From Melampsora larici-populina 98AG31 (lineage: Eukaryota; Basidiomycota; Pucciniomycetes; Pucciniales; Melampsoraceae), in contig NW_006768769.1 of NCBI RefSeq assembly GCF_000204055.1, positions 2,349,942 through 2,413,941 of the forward strand: 64,000 nucleotides of DNA. Direction: 5' to 3'. The notes beneath the pieces were generated by a model. It ran no database searches and was not told where the DNA came from. It was given only the letters and a program-made list of their open reading frames with translations. How positions within the stretch are numbered: the first letter of the stretch is position 1; each line of letters starts with the position of its first letter. The translations under genes were made by a program, and so were the position numbers. Below are positions 19,286 through 57,714 of the stretch, in pieces.

Positions 19286-20900
19286 TTACTTCTTTGCCCC
19301 AAACCCAACCAATCCAATCAATCCAAGTAAAGTGCCCCACTTAATAATCCAAGCAAAAACCGTCAGGATCTGAGCACCTAAGCCCATCCTACCCGATCCG
19401 ATCCCACCACCCGATCGGTTCCCTTCGTCATGGTTTGACCAAGCTGGTTTCTTTTTAGATGGGTTGTTTAAATCTTCTGGTGGATGATAAACGATTCCGG
19501 TAGACGAAACTGAGACTATGTCATGTGCGTCTGTTCCGAGGAAAATCATATATCAACTTCACTTTCAGAGGGTTTTTCTGGAGGGTAAGGGTAAGGGAGG
19601 GCAGGGTTTGGATCACGTACCACTTACTTCCCCTGTATGAGCTGTGAAACCTAGGATAGGTTTATCAGGTAACGAATAATTTTCAATCGTAAAACAATGA
19701 TTCCATTCATCCCATTTCTCATGATGAACCAAAACCTAAACCGACGGCCGTCAAACCAAACCAAACGAATCAGTTTGTGTGTTTTCTTAGAGAAAGAGAG
19801 AAGAGATGGATGATTACTTCTAAGAATTTAGATTGAACATAACTGATCCTTAATTTACTGGCCACATCTGATCTTCTGATTGATAAAGAACATGCACCGG
19901 ATTCTTGACCGTCTCCATCTTTTCTTACATCATAACTCATATATCCATTATTCGTCATTCCTATGATTCTTGGAAACGAATACTAGAAAAACATCCAAAA
20001 CCAAAACCAAAACCATAACAAAACAGAAACAAAAACAAAAACAGAGACGGGGTTCGGTTAGGTGTAGGAAAGGGTTTGGGAGGAAGAGAAGGAAAGACGT
20101 ACGGAGTGACGAGAGTTTGGAAAAGTATCTATAAAGATCCCTAAACCAGTCCAATGATCTACAACCAAAAAGACCCACCAAGAACAATCAAGATCGAGAA
20201 CCAGAAAAGCAAGTAGAAAGGAAAAGAAAAAAAAATGTGATTATGTATGTTATGTACCAGCAGCACCAAAGACAGGACCGAGATGAGTAGAAGATTGAGT
20301 TAACCAAATAGCCATTCCATCACCAAAGACAGTAGAAGATTTTCCATCGATTTTAAATTCGATTTCGATTTGGAAATTCGTTTGTGCTATGGGCTGTCTT
20401 GACCATAGGAATCCGGCTTGGGATGATCTGTCTTGGGTTAATCTGATTTGTTTGTTCGTGTCTATGACTGATTATGGTTTTTTTTGGGGGGAATTAGAGT
20501 GATTTGGGAATTAGAGTGATTGGTTTTTTGGGTTTGAGAGAAGGGAAGGGATGGGGTTTACTTGTTGAACCTCCGAAATCGAACCATCTGTTTTGTAGAT
20601 CTGAATCCACGTAAGCTGATATCCAAACAAAAAACAAAGTTAAGTAAAAAATAATGATAATATATATAAGATGATTTGTGAATTGAATGACTTACGAGCA
20701 TAAATCGAATGACTACGAATCGGAATCGTAGGTTCAGTGATACCTTTAATAAGTCTATTTTTGATATTACCGTTTTCTAAATGTTGAGCTTCTGGTGTAT
20801 GGTTTATGTTTGAAGATGATGATGAGCTTGTGAATCTGATTAAGGTGATTAGGATTGGAATTGAGATTGATAAGAGTTGAGATTGAGTTGATTTGATCAT
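19286..20900 (-). CDS. L-type (legume-like) lectin A, ER/Golgi cargo-receptor type, single-pass membrane protein
   Basis: Seven exons on the minus strand give 347 aa: 20900-20696, 20615-20562, 20461-20258, 20158-20103, 19982-19818, 19735-19621, 19530-19286. The N-terminus is a hydrophobic signal sequence followed by a Ser-rich linker. The lectin domain (about 69-290) shows PYVDSDLQNRWFDFGGST, IRLTQDRSSQAGFLWSR, FGDGMAIWLT, DHWTGLGIFIDTFPNS, the two conserved Cys (ACSL and NHCFTI) and TAHTGEVSDAHDIVSV. A Gly-rich stalk leads to one transmembrane helix near the end (ILTVFAWIIKWGTLLGLIGL), and the chain stops GFGAKK, so almost nothing is cytosolic and the dilysine is at the last two positions, not canonical KKxx. 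The family (VIP36/ERGIC-53/Emp46-47) binds high-mannose glycans and sorts glycoproteins between ER and Golgi. Paralogue of the gene at 52910-54348. Confidence 0.92.
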
Positions 20901-21405
20901 CTTGGATGGTTTGAGATCGAGAGTGAGAGGAGAGCTGAGGAGAGTTGAGAGTGCTGAGTTGAGAATGCTGAGAGTGAGAATGCTGAGTGGTTAATTGGTG
21001 GTTTATTTCTAATTTTTATAGTTTTTTTGGTTTTAATTCTCGATCAACTCAACTCAATCGATCAAATCATCATCATCATCATCATCATCATCAGCATTCT
21101 GAGATTTCTTAAAACTTGAGCTTTCTTTTCTTTCTTTAATGCTACAATCTACTGTACACTTTGGATTCTAGAAATCGTGAATGAAAATGAGAAAGTGAGC
21201 TACCTACCTAATTGCTGCTGCTAGTTTACCAGATTGTGAACGCAGTTTACCAGTCTAACCTATCTATCTATTTATCGAATCATCACAACTCATACTCTCT
21301 TACAACTCAACTTATTACAATTCCTTCAATCAATCAACTAAACCTTCAAAATCTATTACGAATCGTTGAAAGAAATCATCTCAACCATCCATCATTCTTC
21401 ATTCG
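20901..21405. other. Upstream region of lectin A
   Basis: Contains tandem GAGAGTGCTGA-like words (about 20940-20990) and an ATC trinucleotide run (about 21066-21094). No gene is seen. Confidence 0.45.
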
Positions 21406-21508
21406 AACCTTCACGTTCACATCTTTCTATATATGCGTCAGAAAGACAATTCAAACAGATTATGAAGATTTCTTAAAGTGTTTTACAAGCTCAGTTAAAA
21501 AATAAATT
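21406..21508 (+). repeat. 103-bp perfect direct repeat, left copy
   Basis: Begins AACCTTCACGTTCACATC and ends AAAAATAAATT. It is identical base for base to 23758-23860, and the pair brackets a 2.25-kb insert. Confidence 0.95.
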
Positions 21509-23757
21509 AAGGGTACTCAAAGCAAAGTATGTAGCGCTACATACTTTTCGCTACATACTTTTTTTGGCGGGGACAAAGAAAAAAAATATACTTTTGGCCT
21601 CGCCTTCCCCGCCAAAAAAAGTACTGTCGTTCCCAAAAAGGTTGCCACATCGACAAAAATTTTTTGTTGAGGTGGTCTGTGCGCGCTGTCAGAATTTGAC
21701 AAGAGAAGACAGCACAGAACCTCTCTCTCTTTCGAAGCTAAGGGCTTTGAAAGAGAGAGAGGGAACCCTCTTTTTGGAATCCACGACCCAATTCCTCTTC
21801 CCCCATTATCCGCCAAACCACCACGCCCGTTTCAAAAATCGATTTTTTAATTTCTTATTTAGGTCATCACTTCGACTCAAAAACAAAACAAAACGTTCGG
21901 CTCAACGCGGTTCCTTCATTACAAGACTCGGCTTTAAAACTTGATTGTAAGTCCCCAAAAACTCGGCTGTCAAAATTGAATTTTCACCGTCTTATTTAAG
22001 TCTTCACTTCCACTCAAAAAAAACGATAGATCTGCTTAACATGTTCCTCTCGACTCAAAACTCGCTGTTCAAAATCGATCTTTGCCTTTTGTTTTTAGTT
22101 CTTCAGATCACTCAAACCACTCGAGCCATCTGCTAAATTGTTTTTTACTTTAGTAGATAGACTGTTAAAATGAAGTCGATCGATCATGCGTTATCTAAAA
22201 GAACATGTAATTTTCCTTGTTATACAAAAGTTCAATCGATATTGGATTGTCATTGAAATGAAAATGTGATTTGTCTTGTTTTTAACAATTTTAATCGAAC
22301 CGTGGTGAACAAAAGCAAACAAGTTTGATGTAATCAGTTGATAAATTGGAAGATGTGTTTCTCCAAGGTTTTGATCAATCGATCGAATGAGTTTTTAAAA
22401 TCAAACTCGGTCCAATGCTATCAAAGCTTTAAATTTTTTGCTAATAGACTCAAGTCAAACCTGATCTTGTTCTTAAGAAGCTGATCGGGAACTTGGATCA
22501 CTTCACAAGATAGACAAGACAAAGCATAGACTTATCAAAGCTTTACAACCTTTGATAGACCTAAAGTCAAAGGTGATCTTGGTTTTAAGAAGATGATCGG
22601 AAGCTTAAATCGCTTCACAAGATAAACGAGACAAAGCACAGATGGTGCTTTTATGATATCAAAAATTCCAAGAGCTTGTTATGCTTTATTCAAAGAAATT
22701 TTACAAAATTGCTTTGTGAGAAGAAAAATGGTAAAGTATTCAGAAAAGGAAGTTGTTTGCTATCGATTCATCATATGGACTTTGTTGTTAAACAAAAAAA
22801 GGGAGGTATGTAGCCAAAAAATTGGTCACTCGTTATCACCAAAACTAAAAAAGGTAAGAAAGACATGTTGTTGATTGTTATCAAACAAGAATCCAGGTTA
22901 TCCAGAATTATTCAAAAAGGAAACAAGCATTTCCTTGTATGTACAACCAACATCAGGAGTAGAAAAACAAAGAACTGTTTTGTAAAAATCTGATCGGTTT
23001 GAATGAAAATGAAGACTAATTATCAAAACTCGAGTCGAAGAACTCCTAAGAACTGTTTTGGAAAAATCTGATCGGTTGCAATTAAAATGAAAACTTCTTC
23101 AGAGTATTTCTTAAAAGCCATTAGCGATGATGTGGTTTGGCCGATAATGAGGCACTGGTTGGTCAGGAGGAAATGCGAGGATGGATTTGGAGTCGGAATT
23201 CAGGCAGCTGAAAAAAGAGGGCTCTCTCTCTGTTGAGGCTATGGAATTCTTTGACAGGGAGATTCTTTTCAGCTCACGTGCTCACTTCTCTTGTCAAATT
23301 CTGACAGCGCGCACAGACCACCTCAACAAAATTTTTTTGTCGATGTGGCAACCTTTTTGGGAACGACAGTATATAGCAAAAAGTATGTACACGTACAGTC
23401 GTTCTCAGAAATGTTGGAAAAATGCAAAATCTCGAGCTGAGCTCGGGGTCCGTGCGCTGAGCAGGGACACGCAGATACAAACACTGACAAAAACTTTGAT
23501 TTTGACAGGTATCTCAAGATGAAAATTCGTTTACTTTCCATCATACCTCGATGACCACACACCTATCTTGCCAATGGCCAGGCTAACGGACTGATCTCTT
23601 CAGAAAAACGGTGAAAACGTATGATTTCATGGTTAAGGGATTGTAACACGAGTTGAGGATCAGAGGAAGGATGGCATGGAGAGGACACAAGGGAGTTGAG
23701 GTTGGTGAAAGGGACACTGATCTCCACTCGACAGCTGCCATGACTTTTCCGTGACAC
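21509..23757. mobile_element. 2.25-kb insert with internal inverted arms and subrepeats
   Basis: Bounded by the 103-bp direct repeats. Near the left end is a perfect 20-bp palindrome (21526-21545, AGTATGTAGC and its reverse complement). Inverted arms at 21621-21708 and 23285-23371 share about 87 bp with a few differences (GTTCCCAAAAAGGTTGCCAC, GAGGTGGTCTGTGCGCG). Inside are imperfect tandem units: about 100-bp units at 22447-22542 and 22553-22645, copies of AAGAACTGTTTTG near 22969 and 23047, and three TTCAAAATCGAT...CACTCAAA units between 21825 and 22120. Open frames over the arms are mirror copies and are not read as genes. No transposase is visible. It is a non-autonomous or composite element. 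Confidence 0.7.
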
Positions 23758-23860
23758 AACCTTCACGTTCACATCTTTCTATATATGCGTCAGAAAGACA
23801 ATTCAAACAGATTATGAAGATTTCTTAAAGTGTTTTACAAGCTCAGTTAAAAAATAAATT
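23758..23860 (+). repeat. 103-bp perfect direct repeat, right copy
   Basis: Identical to 21406-21508. After it the sequence continues as ordinary intergenic DNA, as if the pre-insertion site had one copy. Confidence 0.95.
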
Positions 23861-25556: not shown

Positions 25557-28182
25557 ATGACATCACCTATCTTAAATACGTTACCTTCTATAGGTGATAT
25601 TCTGGCTCTTTTACCTCCAGGTGGGAATCCTTATTCGTTTGGATTAGAATTAGTTGAATCAAGGTTAGTATACTGTCTGTTTGTTTGTTATAAATTCGTC
25701 ACTTTTTTATAGAATCTTTTCAAATTTTCTAACTAATATTTTTTTTCTTTTTTCTTTTGGTATGGAATTCAAAAAGTGCATTTCCATCGGTTGAAAAGAA
25801 AACTTATCAAATCTTAATAGGTCTTTCGATCATTCATGCTTGTACAATCTTATTTTGTGGAACAGTGATAAGTATTCCATGTTGGAGAAAACATGAAGAA
25901 TCTAAATCCAATTATAAAGCTCGAGGTAGAAGTAGAAGTAGAGGTGGAGGGGGAGGTGAAGGTGAAGGTCAAAGGATGATTTGGTTACTTAAAAAGTTTT
26001 ATATTACTGAAAGTGAGTGTTGAGAAAAAAAAACTTGATTGATGACTTTTCGGTTTTGATTTAGTATATGAAAAATAATTTATTGATGGATAATTCTTTT
26101 TTTTCTTTTTCGTGATTTCGTTTGGTTTGAGTATAGGTAAAAAAACTTATTGGATTCCAAATACATGTAAGCTCTTTTCTTTCCTCACAACCTCATCCAT
26201 TCATCTCTTTTTAAAGATGATCTTATAAATCAAAAGACTAATTTTATTTTCTTTTTCGATGATTTGATTTTGAAATAAATAGCTTTAGCCGTTGCGATTT
26301 GTCAATTATTAACTAGTTGTTTTTGTGAAATTTATACTTATGTTGATTATGCTTCATTAAAATCACCTGAATTTGCTGGAAAAATGTCATTAGGAATTTG
26401 GTAAGTCAAAAAAAAGAAGAAAGAAAAAACTTGAATAAAAAAAACCCTAAAAACTTGAAAAAAATAAGACTAATGTGTTTTTTTTTTCTTTCGGGTTGAT
26501 AAAAAGTGTACAATTCATGTGGTTGTTTAACTTTTATAGTTATTTTGTTACATCTTGGGGGGCTTTAAATACTTGGTCAGTTTCTGTTTCTTTAACTAGA
26601 TTCTTGAATTACGAAGCCAGGAAGAATGGATGATGTTGAAGCTTACATTTAAAGTTTCTTTTTATCAGTCTTTGTTTACCTCATCCATCTTCAGTCTTAA
26701 CCAAACGAGTGATCTCTCAACCGATGATCCTATACATCTTCTGTACTGGAGTACCAATCCTAGTGACCATCATCACTTTAACCTGGAGTATTATCTTGGC
26801 TATTGCCTATCGAAAAGAAATCGATCATATCACTTTAGTTAGAGATTTACTTAGTAATGCTTCTAAGAATTGGGAAGCTAAAGTGATACCTGATCCAGAT
26901 GAGTTTATTAAGATCGTAATGGCTGGTGATGAGCTTTTGAAATCTACTGCTCATTTGATTAATTGTCTTAAATGGAACTCCTTTACTTGGGCTTTTCTTT
27001 GGACGATTACTGGGATCGTAAGTTTGAATTGTTTTTCTTTACAATATTGAAATTATACATCTTCTCTTTTTCTTTGACTGATTTTTGGTTTGCTTTGTCG
27101 GATTCTTCGTTTGTTTTGAATCATAGTTTTATACTAATTCAGTTTGGCCATTAGTTAAACTTATGAAATCTTGTTCAAATCGAATGAGACATATAAGAGT
27201 TGTAAGAGTAGGAGACCATCCTAATCTGATCACACCATCACAACCATCCAGTTTAATTCCAAATTATGAAGCTCCAATTAATCATCAAAGTATTAAAGGT
27301 GTTGGAAAAGCTTTAAGAAGAGCTTATAGTTCGTCTCAAATTCTTTTAAATCCTTTTTTCTTTTTCCTTTTGACTTTGACTTTGAACTGAATTTGAAATT
27401 TCTTTGGGGTTTGATTTTGGTTAGTTTTTTTGGTTTGTCATTGTACTGTGATGACTATCTCAGTGGTTTATACTATCTTGGTTTGTCTTATTATTGGAAC
27501 TCATACTGAAAAAGTGATTGTAGTGTAAGTCAAACTTCATTTAGTTTCTTTTTTTAAATCTTCAATTTTCGTTTATAATCAATTTATTCACTTTTTCTTT
27601 GGGGTGGTCTATGGTTTGTTTATAGGGCTCGTTGGCGTTCACTTGGGTCTTGGCTTTATCTTGTTAGTGGTGGGTTTTCGGCCATTGCAATGTTATTCCA
27701 GAGTGTAAGTTTCCGATTCTTTCAAAAAAACACATTCGAAATCTTTAATCTCATTTACATTTAAACTGATGATAATGATGATGATTTATTTTTGACAGTG
27801 GCGTTCATATACTGAGACAGATGTTAACAAATCCAGTTCAACTTGTATCTCAACCTCATCCATCACAAGTATAGATCTATACCATAAACTTTCATATAAA
27901 CTAGGACGTAGACAGACGACGACAAGTAGTAGAAGTACAAGAACTGAATCGAGCTATTCGACTAGTTCATCAAATCATCAGATCAAAGAAATCGAACCGG
28001 TTCTTAAAGATCTTAGATGGAGTGATGAGATTTTGATTATTAGGAATCCAAAGATCTTTAAAAACGATCATGATTTAGAAATCCTTAAAGAAGATTTGGA
28101 TCTTGCTAGTACTGAAGATCATCATGATGATTCGTTTAAAAGTTTATCTCCTTTAATTTCAATTTCGAATTTTAATAGGTAA
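25557..28182 (+). CDS. 7TM-A: seven-transmembrane protein with long cytosolic tail, GPCR-like, family unnamed
   Basis: Ten exons give 557 aa: 25557-25663, 25777-26012, 26137-26166, 26283-26400, 26507-26575, 26669-27017, 27127-27328, 27425-27524, 27626-27704, 27799-28182. All phases agree, and the order was confirmed against the two paralogues at 49-58 kb. Predicted helices lie at about 46-68 (TYQILIGLSIIHACTILFCG), 125-145 (SLAVAICQLLTSCFCEIYTY), 163-190, 206-230 (PMILYIFCTGVPILVTIITL), 289-315, 371-396 and 405-428. No signal peptide is present. A long loop after helix 4 and a Ser/Asp-rich tail of about 125 residues complete it. The seven helices and tail resemble a receptor layout, but I see no STE3, Pth11 or rhodopsin signature, so a ligand or G-protein role is only an inference. 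It sits 4.7 kb from divergently transcribed lectin A. Confidence 0.85.
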
Positions 28183-30218: not shown

Positions 30219-30657
30219 CTTCCTAAGATTACATACATCTCACAGCTGTAACATGTATGAAACTAAGTAGAAAGATTTATAAATTATATGTAATAGAACC
30301 TAACCTTGGAACCACAAAGTTTAATGCTCATAGGATTTTCAAACTTCAGACTACAAAAACTCTGAATATGCAAACTTTGCAATCATGATGACATTATGAT
30401 TTAATACTTTTCATTTACCCAATGAAATCCTCATCACCAACTAGATTAGCTTTCAGTAAGGTGAAATTTACTACCTTATTTGTGATTTTGTTACATTGTT
30501 CTTGTGGTTCTCAATTCCTTCCATTATTGTTACTATTCCTGAACACAGTATATTCATAGTCGTTGATTACCATTTGTAGAGTCAAACTATTCAGGAGACA
30601 AATAGTCCTTAAGTGCTGCTTGATCTGATTGGGATTTGGTCAGATCAAGGAACTTTG
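30219..30657. other. Intergenic between two MITEs
   Basis: AT-rich; nothing recognisable. Confidence 0.4.
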
Positions 30658-33135: not shown

Positions 33136-33756
33136 AACCTGTTGTACAAGTCTCTCACAGTCTACAGAAAGACAATACACTGGTCAGATAATCACATAAC
33201 ACTTGTGGTGCTTCATGCCATTGCGACTATTTGATAAGGGTACATATTTGCATCTTTGCTATCAAGTTGTGAGGAACTTACCCTTGACCTAGAAGAAATG
33301 AGATGTGCCCAGTCTACAATTTTCTGGTGATTGACCATCAAAAAAATCAATGTGTGCAGTTATGGAAAGTCCACTTCATGAGGTCGCGGGGCAGCTATCC
33401 TGTCAAATCAAGTGTCAAGGATTGTATGAATTTGGAACCCATGCCACCACAACTAGAGAATTTCTGTAGTCCACATTTGATACTTTGAATAATGTATCCT
33501 GGCTGTACATTACATGTTCCACATTGGATGTGGAGTCTATTTTTCATATTGGTCTCAAAACACCATCTGAGTTCAATTACATAAGATATCCTTGGTCTAG
33601 ATCTGATGCATTTACTATTGGTAAATGTTTTATAACACACACTGCATATGACTGTTGAATTGCATTTTCTTGCCCCATGGGTTTTGTGCTTGAGTAAGAT
33701 TCAGGCAGCTTCCTCCCTTAGAAGTTATTTTTTGATCAACATCACAAATTTCAGAA
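33136..33756. other. Upstream region of the 878-aa secreted protein gene
   Basis: AT-rich, with no coding feature. Any promoter for the gene at 33757 would lie here. Confidence 0.4.
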
Positions 33757-36393
33757 ATGCCTCACTCATCTTTAACAATATCAAAGCTACTTCAATCCTG
33801 GGGATTGATTGTCTTCATTTTTTGGATACCATCAAGCTGGGCTATCAAAGACATACTATTGCCAGCAAATGACATAGAAAGAATTTCAGAGGAGGATATA
33901 TGGTTTGAAACTTTGCTCCATCAAGAAAACAACTTTCCTGATATTGTGCTACACACAGAACCAGATCATTTTCAAGGTTACAATTTTGAAAAGTTGGAAT
34001 CTAACACACATGGGTACACTGATTTTCTTTACCCGCATGTGCTATCTAGCAATGGATTTATGAACCCCAGCTTGGAAGAACACTTGATTTGCTCAGGGGC
34101 ACCAGAAAATTGGCACACCTTTCAAAATAATGACAATGTATGCATTGACCAAACTTCACCAGCCCTTGAGACCATTCTTCCCAAGGATACTAGAACAATA
34201 TCATCCAATTACAACACCAATTATCCAATTCAAGAAGGTCTTGATAGTCACCAACACCTTGTTGATATCTGTAATGAGGATCAACTTAACTTGGACCAAC
34301 ACTCATTCTTTGGTCCAAAAAGCCAATCTGGAACATTGGAAGCTAAATATAAACAACTTCTTTCTGGCCAGGCCAGGCACCCAGCAAGCACTTCTGACCA
34401 TATACACAGCTATGCAGGCCCAAAAGACTTGGACACTCATTATGATCCTGACCTGGATGACATATTTTCAAGCCTCCAACCCCTTGATAGCTCTGAATGT
34501 GATTTTTTAGGCTGGGCTTCACCTAACCGAGGTGTTCTTCAAGATGTTCCACCCTATTTTCATAACCAAATGGGGAGCACATCAAGTCAGATTATTTACA
34601 TAAATGAGGAAAATGAAGGCACCAATACACATAGGCCAAGCCAAGGTGACAATATGGAAGCTGATGATACACTGTCTTATGGACCCCATCAATTTAGATC
34701 AGTAACAGACCAGACAGAATTGTCAAAAGGCAAGAAGAGGCTGTTGATTGAAGAGAATGGTCACAATGAGATTGAAAGGGGCAATGGTTTCCTAGTTGAT
34801 ATTAGTAAAGAGATTGGAAATTTGGAAAATGATAAACCTCCAAGGAAGAAACAAACCCAGAATCCAAAAGATAAGCTTTCACAAGGATTAATTGATGAAT
34901 ACATTGTTCCAGTGACACAAATGTTTGATAAATCTGCAGGGGCACAAGATTGCCAACATGTTGGTTCAATACCAGATACCTCAAGGAATTTGTCAAAAGA
35001 TGTGATTGTTCCAGCTATTAAAAAAGGAATTCAAAAGAAACATGACTGGAAGAAGCCTGGCCAGGACACACTTACAATGCTCAAGGATATAGGTGTATAT
35101 TATGTGGCTAATTCCCCTGTTTATGCTTATAAACTGCCCATCTGGTTCAAAGCACTCAGGGATGATTTGATGAAGATTTCAAGTAAAGATAAAAATCTGG
35201 GAAAGGCAGTGCATAAAGCAATCGATTGTGCACAGTGGTGGGTCACAATGAGCATGTTTGGTATTGTCATAATACATCATGACCCTGTATTAGATAGTTC
35301 TTTGCTAGAAAAAATGTTGGGCCATATGTGGGACCTCATTCACCCTATCTTTGAGCAATGGAGGCATGTGGGGATCAAGGATATGAAGCTCAAAGCACGT
35401 CAGAGTTATTTGCTAGAGCCCCTGTTCCTGTTTGCATACTTTTCCAAATTACCCAGATTGACAAAAATGTCATTGAAGATTTTGGAATCAATTTTAGTCA
35501 GATATAACCTAGACCCAAACACATCAAAGATAAATGTAAAGGAAATAGGGAAGCTTCAATGCAAAGCCCAGAGTATCTACAACCAAGACATGATGTTCAT
35601 CCAGGGTGGATTATATTCAAGAGCATCAATAGGGAACCTTGAATTTGAGGAAATGAGATATCACAGTGGTCATAGAAATTTGCCATGGACTTCAAGAACT
35701 TTGAATAGGCACAAAATTAATGAATGCAGGTCAATATCTAGGTCTGCCAAGTTTCTTATGCCTAGGGGTTTCGAACTGTGTCAAAAGATTCACATTTTTT
35801 TTGTAGAATTGATTATCAACTTGCTGAACAAGTATAAAGTTAGTAACAATCTTCATCAATATTCAACTCACCAGATACACTTGTGCCATACTGTGGTTCT
35901 AGAGAATAAAGCAAAACATGAGTCAAATATGGAGACTATTGTCAAGGCTGTTAGCCTTGCAGAGTATAGAATAACAGTGGGTTTTATAGGAATGATAAGA
36001 TCACTCTATGAGAAGCAGTCAACAGAAACCAAATTGAACACTATCCTTGATAATGGGTGGAACTTCCTCAAAAAGGAATATTCAAAGTGGAAGCTTTTGA
36101 GCTTTGAGGATGGAATACACTCAGTATTTTTCACACAGGCAGAAACACTATCACAAGAGCTGAGGTTTGAGAAATCATGGTTAGATCCAAGACTTTCATT
36201 CCAATCCCTTTGCACACATACAAAAGACCTGGCAAACCATCCAATATCACTGACCTATTTAAAAATGCTTTTGAAATCATGGTTTGATGAAGCTTCAGAT
36301 CCATACCTAATGGAAGCACTTGAACATCTCTGTAGATTCAAGATTAGAACATACCGTTGCTGTTTAGATTGGCTTAATAATAAAACCCCTTGA
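33757..36393 (+). CDS. Large intronless predicted secreted protein, 878 aa, function unknown
   Basis: A single uninterrupted open frame of 878 codons. The N-terminus has a short polar start, then a hydrophobic core (LLQSWGLIVFIFWIPSSWA) ending in SSWA, a good signal-peptidase site. No other membrane helix is evident. The first half (about 30-330) is Asp/Ser/His/Asn-rich and probably disordered. A basic patch GKKRLL and later PRKKQ lies in the middle. The second half (about 400-878) is helical and Trp/Cys-containing (WKKPGQDTLTMLKDIGVYYV, QWWVTMSMFGIVIIHHDPVL, FKIRTYRCCLDWLNN). I recognise no domain. The secretory signal, lack of introns in an intron-rich genome and position inside a transposon island suggest a lineage-expanded secreted family of rusts, possibly host-interacting, but that is inference. 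Confidence 0.75.
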   Translation: MPHSSLTISKLLQSWGLIVFIFWIPSSWAIKDILLPANDIERISEEDIWFETLLHQENNFPDIVLHTEPDHFQGYNFEKLESNTHGYTDFLYPHVLSSNGFMNPSLEEHLICSGAPENWHTFQNNDNVCIDQTSPALETILPKDTRTISSNYNTNYPIQEGLDSHQHLVDICNEDQLNLDQHSFFGPKSQSGTLEAKYKQLLSGQARHPASTSDHIHSYAGPKDLDTHYDPDLDDIFSSLQPLDSSECDFLGWASPNRGVLQDVPPYFHNQMGSTSSQIIYINEENEGTNTHRPSQGDNMEADDTLSYGPHQFRSVTDQTELSKGKKRLLIEENGHNEIERGNGFLVDISKEIGNLENDKPPRKKQTQNPKDKLSQGLIDEYIVPVTQMFDKSAGAQDCQHVGSIPDTSRNLSKDVIVPAIKKGIQKKHDWKKPGQDTLTMLKDIGVYYVANSPVYAYKLPIWFKALRDDLMKISSKDKNLGKAVHKAIDCAQWWVTMSMFGIVIIHHDPVLDSSLLEKMLGHMWDLIHPIFEQWRHVGIKDMKLKARQSYLLEPLFLFAYFSKLPRLTKMSLKILESILVRYNLDPNTSKINVKEIGKLQCKAQSIYNQDMMFIQGGLYSRASIGNLEFEEMRYHSGHRNLPWTSRTLNRHKINECRSISRSAKFLMPRGFELCQKIHIFFVELIINLLNKYKVSNNLHQYSTHQIHLCHTVVLENKAKHESNMETIVKAVSLAEYRITVGFIGMIRSLYEKQSTETKLNTILDNGWNFLKKEYSKWKLLSFEDGIHSVFFTQAETLSQELRFEKSWLDPRLSFQSLCTHTKDLANHPISLTYLKMLLKSWFDEASDPYLMEALEHLCRFKIRTYRCCLDWLNNKTP

Positions 36394-46261: not shown

Positions 46262-46526
46262 TGTTTGTTGATCGAGAGGTTTGAAAGTTAAGAGAAATTG
46301 GTGCTGATGTGAATGTCAAAGGCGCTGGCTGCTTTAACATGCAAGTCGAGTTCAGCTTCTGATCCGATCCGATCCGATCCGATCTGACACACACCACTCA
46401 AAATTATCCTTATGACTCGGGTCGAGTATAAATATTTACAAACTTTCAAAGAGTTGATGCAAGAAACAATAATCAGATCGATCCATAATTTATAACATTT
46501 CAACAAATTGCATATTTATCAAGGTG
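46262..46526. promoter_or_regulatory. Shared 265-bp divergent promoter of FMC1 and the sirtuin gene
   Basis: The two ATGs are 265 bp apart and face away from each other. A run of GATCC units (46361-46384) and a TATAAATATTT stretch (about 46428-46437) lie in the middle. The GATCC run could be a repeated binding site, but no factor can be named. Confidence 0.6.
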
Positions 46527-48366
46527 ATGGGTCGAATTTCAATGCCACAGTTACCTCCCTTGAATCCTTCATTCAGGGAGACGTCAAAAACAATTAATGA
46601 ACTATCAAAAGCTATTCAAACTCTTACTTCTTTCTTTCTTAATTCTTCTAATTGTATTGTCATCACCGGTGCTGGTCTCAGTGTCGATTCGGGTATAAGA
46701 GCTTATAGGTTTGATATTCTTTTCAAAAGTTTGTGCACAGATTCGGTCTAGTTGGGTCGGTTTCTGATGAACATCTTTCTTTGATAATTCGTTTTTCGGG
46801 TTTTTTTGGTTGGCTTACTTGTGAATATTGTGCAATGTGTGACATGATTCACAGAGGAAAAGATGGGGTTCGTGACATATTTTGGTTAGATTGACAGTGT
46901 CTCTTTGGAAGCTCGGTGGATTATGAAGAAATGTATAGGATGAAACGTTGATTGTCTTGTTCTTTTTGAAATCAAAGTCTTATTCGATCAATAAGACATA
47001 TCGTCCAATCTTTTTTCAGTTTAGTATTTCATTTTTTGAATTTCTTAGATTCCTTTCGGGTCTACCATACTTGATCAACTGACTGATTTTGATTTATCAA
47101 CCGAATTCTTTTTTGTTTTTTCTATAATCAGTGAATTTCAACAAGTTGAGCATTTCTTATAGAATTGACTTAAATAAATTCATTACGTTTTGTGGGCCAA
47201 AAACATCACATACTAAGATTATGATCAACAACGATGACCCAAAAAGTCTGAAAGTTTTCGAAAACGATATTGGGCAAGATCGTATTTAGGATATCCGAGT
47301 GTACGTGATGCAGAACCTAATATTGGACATTATGCTTTATCAGCTTTAATGAAGATGGGATACGTTAAAAAAATCATTACTCAGGTTGGTCAGATTCCTC
47401 CCTTTCTTACTCAAAGAAATTTTATGTCTGTTTTTGTTGGCGGCTTTTGAACTGATGTTGATTTTGATTTTGGATGAGATTTTTGGGTGTAGAATGTTGA
47501 TAGGCTTCATCATCGTGCTTCTCTAGATGATGAAAGCGTTTTGAATCATCCTTCTATTCTTGAACTTCATGGAACTCTACGATTTGTGAATTGCTTAGAC
47601 TGTGGTCATCTTATAGGTACCTTTTATCACTTTGGAAAATCCTAAGAATGATGGTTCTACACTCAACTTTTGAATTCGATCTGTTTTTTATTCAGATCGG
47701 AATCAGATTCAAGATCAATTATCGAAATTGAATCCTGATTGGGCTGATCATCTTGATCAACTTGCAATTGTTGGTCAAGAGATTAAAACTAATCCAGATG
47801 GTGATATAGATTTGAATGATAGATCATATGATTCTTTCGTTTTACCTAGTTGTTCAAAATGTTTAACTGGAATCTTAAAACCTAGTGTAAAGTTTTAATT
47901 CGGCATTTTTCACTTTCTTTCCTCGTCTGTCCATTTCAAAGCTAACTTTGTATTGGATTGTGATGTTTTTTACAATCATTGGATTTTTGAACAGGTGACT
48001 TTTTTTGGTGAATCACTTCATAGTAACATTAAACCTAAAACAGAAGAAATTATTTCGAATTCATCAAATTTGATTGTCCTTGGTTCATCACTCACAACTT
48101 ATTCAGCTTTCAAACTTGTAAAACAGTTTAAAGATCTCAAACCACATTCTCAGGTTGGATTAGTAAACATTGGTAGATGCAGAGCAGATGAGATTGTAGA
48201 TTGGAAGATTGGAACTGATACTGATGAACAAATTGGATTAGGTTGTAGTGAGGTTTTAAGAGCAGTTGGATTAGAACTTTTTCAGAGAGATTATCGTGGT
48301 ATAGGAAAAGAAAAAGAAGTGGTTAGGAACTTGTTGGAAAGTGGGGTTAAGAAACCTGTTCTTTAG
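46527..48366 (+). CDS. Sirtuin (SIRT4-type, class II) NAD-dependent deacylase
   Basis: Eight exons give 357 aa: 46527-46708, 46855-46867, 46978-47018, 47132-47144, 47247-47384, 47493-47616, 47696-47886, 47995-48366. Two exons are only 13 nt, but each is needed to rebuild the family sequence. Motifs in order: ITGAGLSVDSGIRAYRGKDG (NAD binding), NKTYRPIFFHEF, FRKRYWARSYLGYPSVRDAE, TQNVDRLHHRA, LELHG with the catalytic His, zinc Cys pairs NCLDCG and CSKCLTG, KPSVVTFFGES, GSSLTTYSAFKL and VNIGRCRADE. The YWARS and RPIF(F/Y)HEF signature is typical of SIRT4-like proteins, which are mitochondrial. No strong cleavable presequence is seen, although the start has several hydroxylated and basic residues. 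Shares its promoter with FMC1. Confidence 0.92.
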
Positions 48367-49126: not shown

Positions 49127-51177
49127 CTATTCTAATGGTAAAGAAGTAGTTCGCAAAGGTGGCAATTCTGGTGGAACAGATAGTGATGGTGAAGGTAAAG
49201 GTAGAGGTAGGGGTAGGGGTGTCAGAGAAGGTGAAGCAAGAGGTGTGGGAGTTAAAGGAGCCAGAGTGATATAGATTACTGAGTTTTCTCGAATTGGATC
49301 AAGGGTTTGAAATTGAACCTGTGGTGATCCAATTGTTGAGACAGAAGCGATGCTGCTTGCAGGTGCAGATGACTTTGGTCCAGGTGTTTGCATGTGTAGA
49401 ATTGGATGTGAGATCTTTAACTTTTTGTTTGACCCTTCCTTTGAAAGTAGCATCTGGCCCTGCATTGGTGATAAGCATTTTGAATCAGTTTACATTACTT
49501 TAGCGATGAGAAATTCAGATGTCAACTTACACTTTGAATAAGTAAAGATAGAGAGAGAAAGGCAGCGCTAAAAACGATGACCCAAGCGGAAGTGACTCGC
49601 CATGCAGGTCTATAGAATAATTTGGACGGATGAGAAAACGCCGGTGTCCCGAAGGAAGAGCAACGGGGTAAGAGGGAAAAGCCTTACGTGACGAGAATAT
49701 CCTCAGCTTTGATGGTCAAGATCAAACCAGTAACTACGTACCAGAGTAAAAGTAAGGTAACGAGCATACATCGGGCCACGAGGAAGACTGAACAAGAAGA
49801 AATAACAATAAATCTCCAGCAAAAGATTGAAAGACTTGAATCGATCAAGAAAGAGGACTCAACTATATTTCCTTCGTAACTTTTTGGCTTGTAAAATCGA
49901 CATGGTGGCTCGATCATCGGTTAAAAATGTAGCTTCACTATGACCTTTTTCCATCTCAAAGTCCAATGAAAGTCCAACAGCTGTTTCACGAGCGACAGCA
50001 ACTGACTTTTTCATGAGTTTGAGAAGGAGGACAACGGTGACAGTGTAAAACTAGAGGGAAAAAAACCGTGTACAAAGAATAAGTTAGCTAACTTAGGGAT
50101 ACATATTGAACTTCAAAGGGTGGAAAACGTGACTTACAATTACGGCAATGATGACGAAAAGGGACCAGGCCAAGCAAGCCCCCTTGAAGTGCCTAAGGAA
50201 GAATTGACTACTGTCGTGAAAAGGGAATACAACGCTCGTAAGAGTGTCATAATCGATGTGACGATTGATAGAGGTGGGAGGAGTCCAATGAGCAGATAGA
50301 TCATCGAATGTAGAGATGAGGTTTACAAAGGCTTCCTGTTCGGAGCGAAAAAAGAAGAAAGACGCGATGCCATATCCGCTCGCGACCAACAAGACCACAG
50401 CAGGTACACCGATGCACAATGTGTTGAGTAGAAGCGGGTGAGGGATGGTCTTTTTTGAGCTCCCATTCCGCTTCACTGTCTTGCCCGGTGCGAGGATACT
50501 AAGAACAAATATAAGCAAGACTGGTTCTGTTGATGAATTGAGAAGTACTCACTAAATGTAGAGTGCAGACCAGCCACTAGAATTGCAAAGTACAAGTCAG
50601 ATCCAATCTTATACGAAGGAAAGATGACAATCAATTTACTTACCTGAACCAAAATCCAAAAAAGCCTGGGACGTAGGATACCACAAGCCACATACTGATA
50701 TAACTACGCTGCGAGAACTGGCTCGACTGAAAGTTCATGTAGCTCAGCACAATGAATATCTCGGCGAGGATGCTGGCAAAAATTTGTGAAATGGCGACGG
50801 CCATACCAGGATTAGGGATATAATAGGAATAGATTTGATTATCTGAAGACCAATATGAATCATCATTGAGTTGTTATAATCGGAGAAAGTGCAGAGTGAA
50901 AGTAAAACATACTTTGTGCAACACGTTCTTTCTTCCAAAGCCAAAGGTGTTTCTGTTGAAATGCGTGATTCCGAGTGAATGGAATCACCACGAGTGAAAC
51001 CGCAAGGCAGAATATGACGACGTAGACTACGGCGAAGGTGATTAGGAGACCGTATACTGGATCAGAGGATGGAATAGTGGGAAAAACCACTGCCTGCATT
51101 GACTCTTTCAAATATTCGTAAGGATTGACCCTGGGAGGAAGCTGAGGCAGCGACTGTAATAATCGAATGCTGCTCAT
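49127..51177 (-). CDS. 7TM-B: paralogue of the 7TM-A membrane protein
   Basis: Eight exons on the minus strand give 515 aa: 51177-50913, 50842-50644, 50576-50553, 50498-50138, 50050-49864, 49787-49688, 49609-49531, 49459-49127. Start chosen at MSSIRLLQSLPQLPPRVNPY because it aligns with the start of 7TM-A (NPY shared); the frame is open further upstream without similarity. Helices: VYGLLITFAVVYVVIFCLAV; YYIPNPGMAVAISQIF onward; VVSYVPGFFGFWFSGWSAL; PHPLLLNTLCIGVPAVVLLV; FKGACLAWSLFVIIAVI into FYTVTVV; FLVARCMLVTLLLLWYVV; WRVTSAWVIVFSAAFL. Exons 6 and 7 are 100 and 79 nt, exactly as in 7TM-A and 7TM-C. The tail is Pro/Ser/Leu-rich (PLPLPLPLPSPS). Divergent with lectin B, 1.7 kb away. Confidence 0.85.
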
Positions 51178-52080: not shown

Positions 52081-52146
52081 GACCAGTTGAACCCAGTTGA
52101 ACCCAGTTGAACCCAGTTGAACCCAGTTGAACCCTGTTGAACCCAC
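52081..52146 (+). repeat. Minisatellite, six TTGAACCCAG-type 10-bp units
   Basis: Tandem units GTTGAACCCA, the last with one change (CCCTG). They lie about 0.8 kb upstream of lectin B. Confidence 0.95.
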
Positions 52147-52155
52147 ATATGGTAG

Positions 52156-52232
52156 TTCTGGGCGCGCCTACCTACACTTCAAGTTTTTGAGGCGCGCCTT
52201 CTGGCGTGTTTTTCAAACGCGCCCCCAGCCTG
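52156..52232. repeat. Small GC-rich inverted element (CTGGGCGCGCC ... GGCGCGCC ... GCGCCCCCAG)
   Basis: About 75 bp with imperfect inverted GGGCGCGC/GCGCGCCC blocks. It stands out in AT-rich DNA and is probably a tiny non-autonomous element. Confidence 0.5.
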
Positions 52233-52909
52233 AACGAGTCGAGACCTTCGAGTAGACCAGTGTAAAATTCCTCATCACTCGCCAAACTTATCACTTTATG
52301 GACTATCAACCGCTGCTGTCAGCTCTTTCAGTTCAAATCAATCGCAATCTTAATCCGAGTTTTAATCTCAAAACCTTCCAACCGCCCTGGAAATTTTGAA
52401 CCAAACCAACTAAAGCAAACCGAACTGACCCTCCCACCCACCCAACGGCGCGATCCTAGCCAAGGGAACGCTGGGTTCCGTAGAGCCAATTCCCAAGGCG
52501 TGGCTCCGCTACCGAACTTAATATCGGCCATTGGAGATGCTCCGGGATCAGCTCAACCTTGATATTGGTTCCACGAAGTCTCCAGAGTAACTGCTCGAGA
52601 CCTCCTCTTGCTCCCATTCCAACGCTACCAGAGCCAACAAAAGATTGGGAGCCAGAAGTCAATCATCCGGTCTTCGAGAGGGACTTTGAAAATACCCAGA
52701 GACATAGATCGCAGCTTCGGTTGAGTTGCCTTCCGCTACACATCTGACGTTCATCCCATAGTCGTGAATGCACACCGAACCCTGAGTTCACACCCCATAG
52801 TCTGTATGGATCCCCCGCAACGTTTCTCATCCTGAAATATGGCCGTCTTATATGTATCGCTTTTTCAAAATCTCCACGATTAGGTCCCAACAATCACTTT
52901 TTGTCAACC

Positions 52910-54348
52910 ATGGCACTCTTCCTAGTATTTTTACTCTTCTTAACCCATTCATCTGCCACATTTGATCGAGAGGATATAGTTCTAGATCGACAGATCAAGG
53001 GAAACATCACGCAGCTGGGCGAATTGCACGATCACGGGCTTGAAATTCGTGAGCCTATTCCAATCTTCAGGTTGCAAAGCGATGAATGCATGGATTATAA
53101 ATGACTCCATACTCATCATCATATCCACCAATCCTCATACGGTCTTCCTCTCTCATCAGCTTACGTGGAGAATCTCAGGGGCCTAAATTATGATTTCGGA
53201 GGGTCCACAGGTTTGCAGCACCACTCGCTTCTTTCGTGACCCTTCGGCTGCTGAGTTGATATATGTATTGCACCTGAAGTCATTGATTTAAATCAACACT
53301 GTCGCCTCACGCAACGCAGACCATCGCAGGCCGGGTATCTGTGTTCGCATCGGCCGCTACTCTCGCCTCAATTCCAGATTGATGTAGAGCTTTCTATTGG
53401 TGCCAATGATAAGACTCTGTTTGGCGATGGGCTTGCTATCTGGCTGGTCGAGGACGGGATCAAAAACACGGGCTCTGTGTTTGGAGCCCCCGGTCAGTCT
53501 TTGGACTTAATCAAGCTTTTGTGACTTACATTACAAAAGGCTGACTCTGAATTTATTTTGTTGAACTGTTCCCCAGACTATTGGACAGGTCTTGGAATAT
53601 TCATAGACACTTTTCCAAATAGTGATAAATCAGTTTGTCTTCCACAGAAGTGACCTCTTCTCTATGCCCCCGGACATGCAGCTAAACTTTCCGATCTTCC
53701 AGAAACCATTTCCCATCATGATGGGAATGTTAAATGATGGATCGAAGCGGTACGATGTAGATAATAACGGCCAAGGACAAGGAAGTGGGGAATGTCATTT
53801 GCCCAGGATACGAGATCAAGGGCCTCATACCATTCGAATAAATTATGTGAAATCAAAGTTTCTCGAAGTGAGCATCTCATCTCTCGCTGGGATCTGGTTA
53901 AGATGTGTTTTCAGCAGATTTATAACTTCGAAAAAACCATCATGAAAACAGGTTCTTGTACGCTATGACGATCCTGACAAGTATTCTACGGACGTATGGT
54001 CTCACTGCTTCACAATCTTCGATGTCACATTGCCTCTCCGACCCTACCTGGGATTTTCCGCTCACACTGGTTATCTTGCAGGTTGGTTAATATCCTACGA
54101 TATAAAATACTTAAAGTACGAAATTAACAATGTACCCTGCAGATACCCATGATATTGTCAATGTCTTTGCGAGTCAAATTCATCACGGGCACGAACAGCC
54201 GAAGTTCACACCTCCAGTTCAGCCTCATGTTCAGGAAGTGAAACTCAGTGGAGTAAATATACGTATAATACTACTCCTTGTTTTTTTGGTGGTAGCATTC
54301 TTGGGGGGTAAAAGGTTAGAAACTCCCAACAGAGAAATCTTATCTTAG
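52910..54348 (+). CDS. L-type lectin B, divergent paralogue of lectin A
   Basis: Seven exons give 319 aa: 52910-53048, 53160-53210, 53280-53492, 53577-53632, 53703-53867, 53952-54081, 54143-54348. All intron positions and phases match lectin A, and exons 4 and 5 have identical lengths (56 and 165 nt). Signal peptide MALFLVFLLFLTHSSATF. Lectin motifs: YVENLRGLNYDFGGST, CRLTQRRPSQAGYL, FGDGLAIWLV, DYWTGLGIFIDTFPNS, KPFPIMMGMLNDGS, conserved Cys in GECHL and SHCFTIF, SAHTGYLADTHDIVNV. The C-terminus has one transmembrane helix (IRIILLLVFLVVAFLGG) and then a 13-residue tail GKRLETPNREILS, longer than in lectin A and without a dilysine. The DLQNRWFDFG core of A is changed to NLRGLNYDFG, losing the usual Trp. 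No frame break. Likely still made, with altered ligand or sorting. Confidence 0.87.
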
Positions 54349-55672
54349 AAATCATGAAGCTGACTACACATTCACCGGTGTGATCAGATACAAGCGCTCC
54401 GCTGACAAGAAATTCTGATCCATGTTATTACACGAGGTCATTTCTCCAAAGCTGGTCTTCATTGCACATTGGTTGTATCAGGTGACCAAAACCTCAAGAA
54501 GTTTCAAGATGAGAATGCATAGTTGTCATTGTCAAAGCTCGACTACCCTTCTTGGAGCTGGTCCCTTCCATGGATCCCTTCCATATGCTCGAGAGGAAGA
54601 AACCAAAAAACATGTGGGTCAGTGCATCATGTAGTAAATAAAGGTGGAGCTATGGCTAGGCCTTGAAGCAAGCTAGAGGTACCGGAACAGGAGCATGTTC
54701 TAATGGGGCTCGCCCTGGTACAGTCCAATGCTAAGTCCAGATTGCCCATGAGATTGCAATTAAGTGAAACACGCGGTGTGGCATATTCCAAAAATAATGG
54801 GTTACCAAAACAAATCAGTCATCAGAATCATCTGGGGGGATGGAACTGTGAGATATCCACTTGATCCATATCTTCAATAACTTGAGGAACAAATGTGACC
54901 CGGGTCAGTGGGCACAGGTGTAATGATGCTTGAGTAATATCCAACATTGTTGCGCTATGCAATGAAGCTTTTCTAATCCCATGAGCAAACAAAAGGATCC
55001 TGTGTGGTGTCAAATCATAAATATCACAGCCTTCATTCACTAAAGAAGGTTGATACAGTGGGGTTTGTTAAAGCCCTATGCACGCCTGGTGCTCAGAAGC
55101 AGTCGTGATCTAGCTTGACACGAGCCGTGCCAAACCGCGGGACCCTCACCCCCGGAGGTCGGAGGAGGGACTTAGTTAAGTTGAAGTCGTCGTAGGTCTT
55201 GATGAAATTTGCACCTCCACAGTACAATCTTAATGAGAACAGAGTAGTTCCAGGATGTGAGGACCAGTCACCGTGGCCCAGGGATTTTCAGCAAAATACC
55301 CGAATCTTCGGACATCTTGCCAGATATATTAAACAACGAAATAGCTCCCAAGACTTTTATATTGATCCAAACAAGTCTTCGATGGTGGTTCTTCGGATCT
55401 GTGCATATTGGAGTCTGGGCTCTTTGGTGGGTGCCCATAGAAGCCATGATATAATGCTTAAATACACAAGGAACTTTCAAAGACATAATTTTGTACACCA
55501 AGAGAATGAAAGAGAGAAAGTCATGTTTTGAATGGTTTTAATCACATTTTTACTTAAGGATATCTTGCTCGAATTTATATACTACTGATTTTTGCACGCG
55601 GCAAGTCTACAACCACCATGAGATAAAGATAGATCAAAAAATAATGTAACTGAAGCAGGACGAACGTCATTC
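54349..55672. other. Intergenic between convergent lectin B and 7TM-C
   Basis: Open frames up to 110 codons carry no motif. A short GC-rich patch (about 55125-55175, CCGCGGGACC, CCCCCGGAGG) may be a transposon end. No gene is called. Confidence 0.4.
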
Positions 55673-57714
55673 TCACATCACAAGGGGAGGAGGACATTTT
55701 TCACAAGATGCGATGCACTGGTCGATCATGACAAAGGAGTCCGGTCGGGTCATAGGAAGAGGTTCTGCCATTTGTAGCTGGAGGATGTTCTCAGGCATAG
55801 AGACATCGGACTGTTTTGTTGGCATAAATCTTGTTGGAGATTCGGAAGTCTCCGAAAGTAACTTCCACTATACAAAAATGAACTCGTTGGTTAGTTTTGC
55901 TTTGCCCAATGAAATGATAAAGATGGTTTACGGAATGCTTACGCTTTGTAGTAGTAAAACTACTGATGACAACACTGAACTCGAAACGGTCACCCAGATG
56001 CATACCGACCGCCAGGCGATACTATTTCCAAAGAAGAAGTAAGACTACAAACATATCTCACACTGAAATAGTAGTCGTGTTCATATCTTCATACTCAACT
56101 TGTCGATCACACTCCCGATCTTGATAGTCAAGGCGATTCCGACAATTAAATGCCATACCAGAACCACTGTAAGTAAAGTGCAGTGCAAGAGCAGCATTCC
56201 TACAAAAGTTCAAAAACAACTTACCAAATTGGTTAATTTTGGACTGATTATGAGATAGAGATGAACTTCATTTCTGAAAAGAGGAAACAATCAATGCACT
56301 CACGATAATTTCGTTTGAGATTTTTGGAGGATTTCGAACCGGATAATGCACGTATCACAGTTTGCGTACCTCCGATCCGCTCTGACGTGAGAGCAGGACT
56401 CCGGCTTGGACCCTCAAGTGTTGAGTTGTAGTCAGACGAGCATCCTACCAGTAGATTTCTCTTGCCACTGGCTACATCTACAGTCGTTTTTAGCAGTCTC
56501 AGGAAAATAGTAATGGTGTAACTATAAAACTGTTGAACAAATCCACATGTCACAAAGGTAGCATATCGAGGCGAGTCAAACGGACGTAACCAAAACATGA
56601 GATACTGCAAGATACCAAGGTACATATGGCGTTACCGCACTCAGATCAAAATACGTACACTGACTTCTATCAAAGCTGCGATAGACCACGTAAGGCTAGC
56701 CCACCTGAACTGAGCGACGAATCGCTGGATTGCCAAGGTATATCGGGCCATCTCGTTTGAGAAGTCCTGCCCCGAGGCCACTTGAGCGACAACTGCTTGG
56801 TAAGCTTCTACCCTTTCATGGGTTGCCCGAATTGATACGATACCCCACTGTATAGCCGTGAGGGTGACGAGAACAGGGACACCGACACATGCGCTATTCA
56901 TGATGGCCGGGTGTAACATGCTTCCCCGGCTTGAAACTCCACCGATAGTAGGTCGCTCGGGTGAGAGTAGACTGTGAGTCCAAAAGCTTAGACAGGATCA
57001 GAATCAACGTGAGAAGACAGATGATGATAATGAAGTCACTATTTTTTACCAGATGTATAGTGCACTAAAACCGCTAAACCAAAACCCAGTGAAGCCTGGA
57101 GATACACAGACAGATATAAGAGTGAAAGAAAATTACAAGACGAATTTCGGGTACAATAAATATCAGTAAAGCGAGGTGGACGTACAAGGTGTGTAAGACA
57201 CAGTTAGCCAAAAGTATCGATAGGTTGAGAGTGTCGCTTGAGGGTCCTGAAGAGCCCGATAAGAAAGATAAATATAAACCTCAAAGAGTACACTTGACCA
57301 CAGTTGGGATATGACGATGGAGAGACCACCATTCGGAATATAATAAGGAGTTGGTCGCGCTGTTGCGCAACAAAAGACCGATCCAAGAAAATGTTGTCAA
57401 TGTTTGATCTTGTCAGGTGGACCAAGGAAGACATAACAAGTGGGAACACTAAAAAGGTAGGATAACTGACAAGATAAGTATTGTTTTCGCCAGAGCCAAA
57501 TGTTTTTTTTTCTCGAAGCCGAACCTCTTAGAAATGGAGTGGCGAGGATGACAAGGGCCAGCCCAATGATGACAAGGTAGATGATACCAAGGCCGACCAG
57601 AAGCCTGGAAACATATGGATACACATATGGATGTTGTGATTGATCCAACCGTGACAAGATTATTGAAATTTGTGAGTCTTGCGGTGCACCGGCACTCGAT
57701 GTCGTGTTCAGCAT
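55673..57714 (-). CDS. 7TM-C: third paralogue of the 7TM family
   Basis: Eight exons on the minus strand give 458 aa: 57714-57471, 57359-57186, 57095-57050, 56971-56659, 56529-56304, 56199-56100, 56021-55943, 55867-55673. The first ATG of the frame is at 57714 (MLNTTSSAGAPQD). Helices: LVGLGIIYLVIIGLALVILA; YYIPNGGLSIVISQLW onward; GFWFSGFSALYI; HPAIMNSACVGVPVLVTLTA; RWASLTWSIAALIEVS into FYSYTITIFL; LLLHCTLLTVVLVWHLIVGI; AWRSVCIWVTVSSSVLSS. Exons 6 and 7 are again 100 and 79 nt. The tail is short (about 65 residues) and ends in a Cys/Pro cluster, CIASCEKCPPP, unlike the long Ser/Asp tail of A. Convergent with lectin B. Confidence 0.83.

What the first reader, a model, noticed from the sequence alone, without database searches (positions are those of the whole stretch)
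19286..57714. A lectin-7TM gene pair present twice in opposite order, with a third 7TM copy
Lectin A (-) and 7TM-A (+) are divergent neighbours. 30 kb away 7TM-B (-) and lectin B (+) are also divergent neighbours, followed by 7TM-C. Exon phases and key exon lengths are conserved for both families, so both members of the pair were duplicated, most simply as an inverted segmental duplication. Co-retention after strong protein divergence suggests the lectin and the 7TM protein may work together, for example as a cargo receptor and its client at the cell surface. I know of no described lectin/7TM system of this kind.
Basis: partly seen in the sequence, partly recalled or inferred. Interest (0 to 1): 0.85.

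Follow-up and report, generated by a model that had tools for sequence, protein, structure and literature searches.

The report
Lectin genes inside a 7TM cluster
A poplar rust fungus carries two copies of an ordinary cell-transport lectin inside a cluster of a large, undescribed family of seven-helix membrane proteins; the two kinds of gene are old neighbours, but the evidence does not show that they were copied as a pair or work together.

Summary
The window is Melampsora larici-populina (poplar rust). It holds two PF03388 lectins (lecA, lecB) and three members of a 7TM family (tmA, tmB, tmC), in the stated order and orientation. The lectins share 7 of 7 introns; the three 7TM genes share 6.

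Only two lectin genes were found in the genome, but 40 loci of the 7TM family on 23 contigs, 7 of them within 165 kb around the lectins. tmA and tmB are not sisters: trees holding them together are strongly rejected. A pair duplication remains possible only if it founded the whole 7TM family. No other gene of the window is duplicated between the two blocks.

Linkage is old: Cronartium orthologs of lecA and tmA lie on contigs of one length with consecutive numbers; in M. americana all four have one contig length. Co-retention is not obligate: Puccinia shows lecA but no 7TM hit, Cronartium tmB but no lecB.

lecA is a conserved VIP36-type lectin. lecB, seen only in Melampsora-type sequences, evolves fast and lost an Asp kept in 117 of 120 listed relatives. 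The 7TM family has no match at E 0.01 in Pfam or NCBIfam and none in the PDB.

The parts
19172..20900 (-). lecA: VIP36-type L-type lectin, 8 exons, 362 aa, one C-terminal membrane helix, ending KRF (public MELLADRAFT_47114)
   Evidence: splice model, identical to P0006; PF03388 207.9 bits; best PDB match VIP36 149.7 bits
21406..23860 (.). insertion between lecA and tmA: dispersed element with 94-nt inverted arms (21622-21715, 23278-23371), bracketed by 103-nt identical direct repeats (21406-21508, 23758-23860)
   Evidence: 25 matches of the arm in the genome, many as inverted pairs about 1.5 to 5 kb apart
25557..28182 (+). tmA: 7TM family member, 10 exons, 557 aa (public MELLADRAFT_93647); orthologs in M. 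americana, Cronartium and Austropuccinia
49127..51177 (-). tmB: 7TM family member, 8 exons, 515 aa; orthologs in M. americana and Cronartium
52910..54418 (+). lecB: divergent VIP36-type lectin paralog, 8 exons, 318 aa, ending KKF, Asp of the KDG motif replaced by Asn (public MELLADRAFT_103306, with a different gene model)
55673..57714 (-). tmC: 7TM family member, 8 exons, 458 aa, groups with the C36 and C130 copies

Best explanation
This is a local cluster of a large rust 7TM family in which the only two VIP36-type lectin genes found in the genome sit. Shown: both lectins are PF03388; the 7TM family has 40 detectable loci, 7 within 165 kb here; tmA and tmB are separate old lineages of it; lecB arose within rusts and changed fast. 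Inferred: lecA does what its family does, namely sort N-glycosylated cargo between ER and Golgi, and keeps the conserved sites tested; lecB is a specialised or weakened paralog, because it lost a conserved Asp that I recall as a calcium ligand. The 7TM proteins are probably receptor-like surface proteins (N-terminus out, C-terminus in, by loop charge), multiplied by local and dispersed duplication. Adjacency of lectin and 7TM is then inherited linkage, not a functional unit.
For: Two lectins only: 3 PF03388 matches and 11 matches to lecB at E<=10, all inside lecA and lecB. 40 distinct 7TM loci on 23 contigs, each with at least one match at E<=0.004 (counted); 7 in 165 kb on contig C5, reached by 0 of 20000 random placements. 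Given that cluster, two random points both lie within 4.66 kb of a 7TM gene in 9% of draws, with gene bounds partly approximate. tmA+tmB as one clade rejected; tmA+tmC and tmB+tmC likewise (p 0.0007 and 0.0056). lecB within the rust lectin clade at 97/93 and 99/98. The KDG Asp is D in 117 of 120 listed relatives; the three N are P0010, P0011, P0017, the lecB rows. Seven family-averaged hydropathy peaks; loops 1, 3, 5 carry net +5.4, +2.6, +3.4, loops 2, 4, 6 +1.3, -0.1, +0.9. lecA hits in two Puccinia species without any 7TM hit.
Against: Orthologs of lecA and tmA in Cronartium have consecutive numbers and contigs of one length (41590), and all four genes in M. americana have a contig of one length (1298713): this persistence could reflect selection. 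Genome-wide the chance of one point lying so near a 7TM gene is only 0.5%. Absence of lecB in Cronartium and of 7TM genes in Puccinia rests on word-limited searches (7998 best candidates scored; 120 of 353 lectin hits listed). Hydropathy of 8 single sequences gave 3 to 7 helices. No expression data were examined, and no fold of the 7TM could be obtained.
Confidence: 0.6

Rival explanations
1. An ancient inverted duplication copied a lectin-7TM pair in the rust stem lineage; this very event split the 7TM family into its A and B halves, all other 7TM genes descend from one or the other, and no functional link is needed.
For: Order and orientation fit. lecB falls inside the rust lectins. tmA and tmB lie in different large groups of the 7TM tree and both have Cronartium orthologs. 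Without the insertion the lecA-tmA gap would be about 2.3 kb, near the 1.7 kb of tmB-lecB.
Against: Requires the root of a 40-locus family to lie between the tmA and tmB groups; several other members branch between them. No third gene was copied along within the window. tmB is retained in Cronartium but no lecB was seen there.
Confidence: 0.25
2. One reading: lectin and 7TM are functional partners, the lectin being the cargo receptor of the glycosylated 7TM protein, and the pairs were kept together for that reason.
For: lecA-tmA linkage in Cronartium and M. americana, as far as contig lengths and numbers tell; VIP36 and ERGIC-53 are cargo receptors for certain N-linked glycoproteins (start of the abstract of PMC3912170, listing).
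Against: Lectin without detected 7TM in Puccinia, tmB without detected lecB in Cronartium, Austropuccinia lecA and tmA orthologs on contigs of different length (30.5 and 46.9 kb); two lectins for 40 7TM loci; lecA-type lectins are listed across Basidiomycota where no 7TM relative was found.
Confidence: 0.1
3. lecB is a decaying copy with no function, left beside a 7TM gene.
For: very long branch (stem 2.27 changes per column), loss of the conserved Asp and of the Trp in the LWSR motif, not seen outside Melampsora-type sequences among the 120 hits listed.
Against: open through eight exons with intact splice sites; Asn in all three lecB rows, one of them from a contig with all exons joined.
Confidence: 0.05

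Closest known systems
VIP36 / LMAN2-type L-type lectins (PF03388; ERGIC-53, VIP36, yeast Emp46/47 group)
   Same: lecA and lecB: lectin domain, C-terminal membrane helix, short basic tail ending K-[RK]-F; best PDB match VIP36
   Different: the VIP36 histidine after Tyr-Asp is Val in both; in the 120 listed relatives it is His in only 12. lecB also lacks the KDG Asp, has an insert before the W..CF motif and a shortened stalk.
Fungal 7TM receptors (STE3 pheromone receptors and other fungal GPCR classes)
   Same: seven family-averaged hydrophobic peaks, N-out and C-in by loop charge, long fifth loop
   Different: 13 of 13 members tested have no Pfam match better than E=0.013 (to an unrelated family) and no NCBIfam match up to E=1; the profile has no PDB match up to E=1. 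The STE3 matches of this genome are at C83, C171 and C3, none overlapping a listed 7TM locus.
Locally clustered lineage-specific gene families of rust fungi
   Same: 40 loci, local groups on C5, C15 and C36, strong divergence
   Different: multi-pass membrane proteins rather than the secreted families treated in the passages seen of PMC4071342

Membership tests
VIP36-type L-type lectin (lecA) | PF03388 lectin domain above the curated cut-off | tested here: met
   207.9 bits against 24
VIP36-type L-type lectin (lecA) | mannose-site Asp and Asn (Asp121, Asn156 in ERGIC-53, passages of PMC3912170) | tested here: met
   both present in lecA; GDG Asp in 119 of 120 and FPN Asn in 120 of 120 listed relatives; that these columns correspond to Asp121 and Asn156 is by alignment and recall
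VIP36-type L-type lectin (lecA) | sugar binding and ER-Golgi cycling | not testable with these tools
   no assay; tail ends KRF like 80 of 120 listed relatives
VIP36-type L-type lectin (lecB) | PF03388 lectin domain above the curated cut-off | tested here: met
   158.4 bits against 24
Calcium-dependent mannose-binding lectin (lecB) | Asp of the KDG motif (calcium ligand in VIP36; role recalled, the two residue names searched were not in PMC3912170) | tested here: not met
   Asn in the three lecB rows, Asp in the other 117 of 120; lecB is filed as a homolog only
Known fungal GPCR class | match to a Pfam 7TM family such as STE3 | tested here: not met
   0 of 13 members match a 7TM family; the four families listed at E<=1 are ATPase_gene1 (0.013), DUF6264, 40S_S4_C and Lig_chan (0.6); likewise none for the three window genes
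Known fungal GPCR class | seven helices, N-terminus outside | tested here: met
   family-averaged hydropathy and loop charges over 40 rows; a prediction only, single sequences gave 3 to 7, no fold obtained
Known fungal GPCR class | coupling to a G protein | not testable with these tools
   none
Inverted segmental duplication of a gene pair | both genes of the two pairs are sisters | tested here: not met
   tmA+tmB clade rejected; escape only if the event founded the family
Inverted segmental duplication of a gene pair | further duplicated sequence around the pairs | tested here: not met
   ORF-against-window comparison shows only lectin and 7TM matches between the blocks

The most novel reading that the evidence does not exclude
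The 7TM genes are a new class of receptor-like proteins special to rust fungi, expanded to 40 or more loci to sense the plant or the stage of the life cycle, and the neighbouring VIP36-type lectins were drawn into serving their export to the surface.
Probability: 0.1. Interest if true: 0.8.

Novelty: new variant of a known kind. Interest (0 to 1): 0.4.

Why it matters
As a lectin-7TM system it would matter little: the lectins are an old cargo-receptor family and the linkage may be passive. What remains is a family of about 40 seven-helix loci in an obligate plant parasite with no usable match in Pfam, NCBIfam or the PDB, and no hit outside rusts among the named sources of two protein searches. 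How rust fungi perceive their hosts is an open question, and this family is a concrete set of candidates. lecB is also a clear natural case of an L-type lectin that lost a conserved residue while its sister kept it.

Tried and rejected
Rejected: inverted segmental duplication as the simplest account, and conserved exon structure as evidence for a pair. Looked for recurrent neighbours of other 7TM loci in 19 fetched stretches plus the window: apart from copies of 7TM loci, antisense shadows and what look like repeat pieces, no recurrent partner family. Looked for a third lectin: none. Position of lecB: sister to all rust lecA rows on all columns (84/61), sister to the Austropuccinia-Puccinia rows on the lectin domain (82/74); unresolved. 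lecB held to other groups: with Melampsora and Cronartium lecA p 0.12 and 0.15, with the five other rust rows p 0.27. Some 7TM rows move between trees: C5_2320k falls on the tmA side and on the tmB side. The second joint figure printed (0.13) counts points inside genes and is not used. Single-sequence hydropathy was replaced by the family average. Paper searches for the 7TM family or the lectins in rusts: of which I saw listings with starts of abstracts, only the best-ranked rows where many papers matched (12 of 239, 10 of 82); passages; term counts and passages. None of what I saw describes the 7TM family or the pair; no wider claim is made.

Rows dropped: 3 of 28 7TM loci outside the window had under 230 aligned residues and were left out of the tree; nine loci found later are in no tree, and only one of these nine was fetched (fragments of 41, 14 and 4 bits). 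In one search seven long rows were left out of the second test. The lectin tree used 34 rows: 33 picked by me out of the 120 hits listed, plus the lecB model.

Full report
What the window is. The genome searched as 'own' has 98.3 Mb in 243 contigs and the window is C5:2349942-2413941. The lecA protein equals Melampsora larici-populina 98AG31 MELLADRAFT_47114, on a contig of 2603268 bases, the length of C5.

The genes. I spliced all five genes by hand along GT-AG introns in open frames. lecA (-) 19172-20900 and tmA (+) 25557-28182 are divergent; tmB (-) 49127-51177 and lecB (+) 52910-54418 are divergent; tmC (-) 55673-57714 follows. The lectins share 7 of 7 introns in alignment column and phase; tmA, tmB and tmC have 9, 7 and 7 introns and share six, one of them offset by one column in tmC. 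Contigs of source 'lgn' of 1.5 to 2.4 kb carry all exons joined for relatives of lecA, lecB, tmA and tmB (P0008, P0011, P0127, P0001), which fits transcripts; that is my inference about the source.

The lectins. Both match PF03388 (207.9 and 158.4 bits) and both have VIP36 as the best solved relative (149.7 and 108.7 bits). No third copy was found at the sensitivity used, which works exon by exon. lecA is part of a family listed across Basidiomycota that usually ends in KRF (80 of 120 listed relatives, of 353 hits). The mannose-site Asp and Asn named in passages of PMC3912170 appear kept in both. The Asp of the KDG motif, which I recall as a calcium ligand of VIP36, is D in 117 of 120 listed relatives; the three exceptions are the three lecB rows. 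lecB sits inside the rust lectins (97/93; 99/98 on the lectin domain) on a very long branch. Whether it split before the crown of rusts or inside the Melampsora side is open.

The 7TM family. Searches with tmA, tmB, tmC, P0131 and a fragment protein of another member reach 40 distinct loci on 23 contigs, each with at least one match at E 0.004 or better (counted). Not all are shown to be whole genes: 25 of the 28 loci fetched outside the window in the first round gave 230 or more aligned residues. They cluster: seven within 165 kb on C5 around the lectins, others on C15 and C36. Random placement gave seven within 170 kb in 0 of 20000 trials. Averaged over 40 aligned rows the hydropathy shows seven peaks; loops 1, 3 and 5 are the most positive (+5.4, +2.6, +3.4 against +1.3, -0.1, +0.9 for loops 2, 4, 6), i.e. 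N-terminus out and C-terminus in, while the two ends carry no clear charge. Single sequences gave 3 to 7 peaks. None of 13 members matches a 7TM family in Pfam (best hit of any kind E=0.013), none matches NCBIfam, and the profile finds nothing in the PDB up to E=1. The STE3 matches of this genome are elsewhere. Protein searches found relatives only in Melampsora, Cronartium, Austropuccinia and unnamed sources (5 and 10 hits), within the limits of a word-based search.

Were the genes copied as a pair? The tree puts tmA with the C15, C10 and C3 copies, and tmB with its Cronartium ortholog (and the unnamed P0004) next to a group made of tmC and the C36 and C130 copies. Forcing the tmA and tmB clades together is rejected (lnL 89 lower, p 6e-57; 85 lower, p 1.6e-6 without seven long rows), and so are tmA+tmC (p 0.0007) and tmB+tmC (p 0.0056). 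Since the tree has no outgroup, a pair duplication is still possible if it was the first split of the whole family. Against it, no other gene in the window matches between the blocks.

Is the linkage more than chance? Genome-wide a random point lies within 4.66 kb of a 7TM gene with probability 0.5%, but inside the C5 cluster with 31%, and two points both do so in 9% of draws (uniform points, gene bounds partly approximate). So once the lectins are inside the cluster, their adjacency is not remarkable; why they are in the cluster is not explained by this. The linkage itself is old: in Cronartium the orthologs of lecA and tmA carry numbers 665964 and 665963 and lie on contigs of the same length, 41590 bases, hence presumably one contig; in M. 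americana lecA, lecB, tmA and tmB all lie on a contig of 1298713 bases. Distances there were not seen. In Austropuccinia the two orthologs lie on contigs of 30.5 and 46.9 kb, in an assembly that may be broken; the Cronartium tmB ortholog lies on one of 32.0 kb. Puccinia graminis and P. striiformis show lecA but no 7TM hit, and Cronartium shows tmB but no lecB. Partnership is therefore not obligate as far as these searches reach.

The gap between lecA and tmA was widened by a dispersed element with 94-nt inverted arms and 103-nt identical direct repeats at its edges; without it the gap would be about 2.3 kb, near the 1.7 kb between tmB and lecB.

Mechanism. Most likely lecA sorts glycoproteins in the early secretory pathway like its family, lecB is a changed paralog with doubtful calcium-dependent sugar binding, and the 7TM proteins are receptor-like surface proteins of unknown ligand. 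The first is inference from family, the second from one conserved residue and rate, the third from topology alone. A functional lectin-7TM unit is not excluded but has little in its favour beyond linkage.

Verdict. Observation confirmed, duplication story mostly not supported, partnership unproven. The more interesting object is the 7TM family itself.

Noticed in passing
window 1-64000: GC steps from 32-39% (8-48 kb) to 41-45% (48-64 kb); GC3 is 0.32 and 0.23 for lecA and tmA but 0.44, 0.45 and 0.47 for lecB, tmB and tmC.
   Followed up: partly
21406-23860: Dispersed element with 94-nt inverted arms, bracketed by 103-nt identical direct repeats; 25 arm matches in the genome.
   Followed up: partly
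G000:C3:1958342-1958714 and 1960615-1961091: A 7TM family match lies about 2 kb from a STE3 pheromone receptor match on the same strand; the stretch could not be fetched.
   Followed up: no
public record P0010 (lecB of this genome): The public gene model lacks exon 2 and the membrane tail; the eight-exon model here agrees with P0011.
   Followed up: yes
52083-52152: Tandem 10-nt repeat (CCAGTTGAAC) between tmB and lecB.
   Followed up: no
1683-6344: Long open frames, one with an EST1 RNA-binding match (23.7 bits) and one with a PIN domain (81.1 bits): probably an EST1/SMG6-like gene.
   Followed up: no
33736-36390: 885-aa open frame without a Pfam match at E 0.001.
   Followed up: no
46473-48366: Frames that look sirtuin-like by a recalled motif; neither piece reached Pfam E 0.001.
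   Followed up: no
loci L041, L042, L043, L046, L047: Five 7TM loci on C135 (two), C88, C22 and C43 form a young subfamily; the pairs L041-L043 and L042-L047 are nearly identical and share flanking frames.
   Followed up: no
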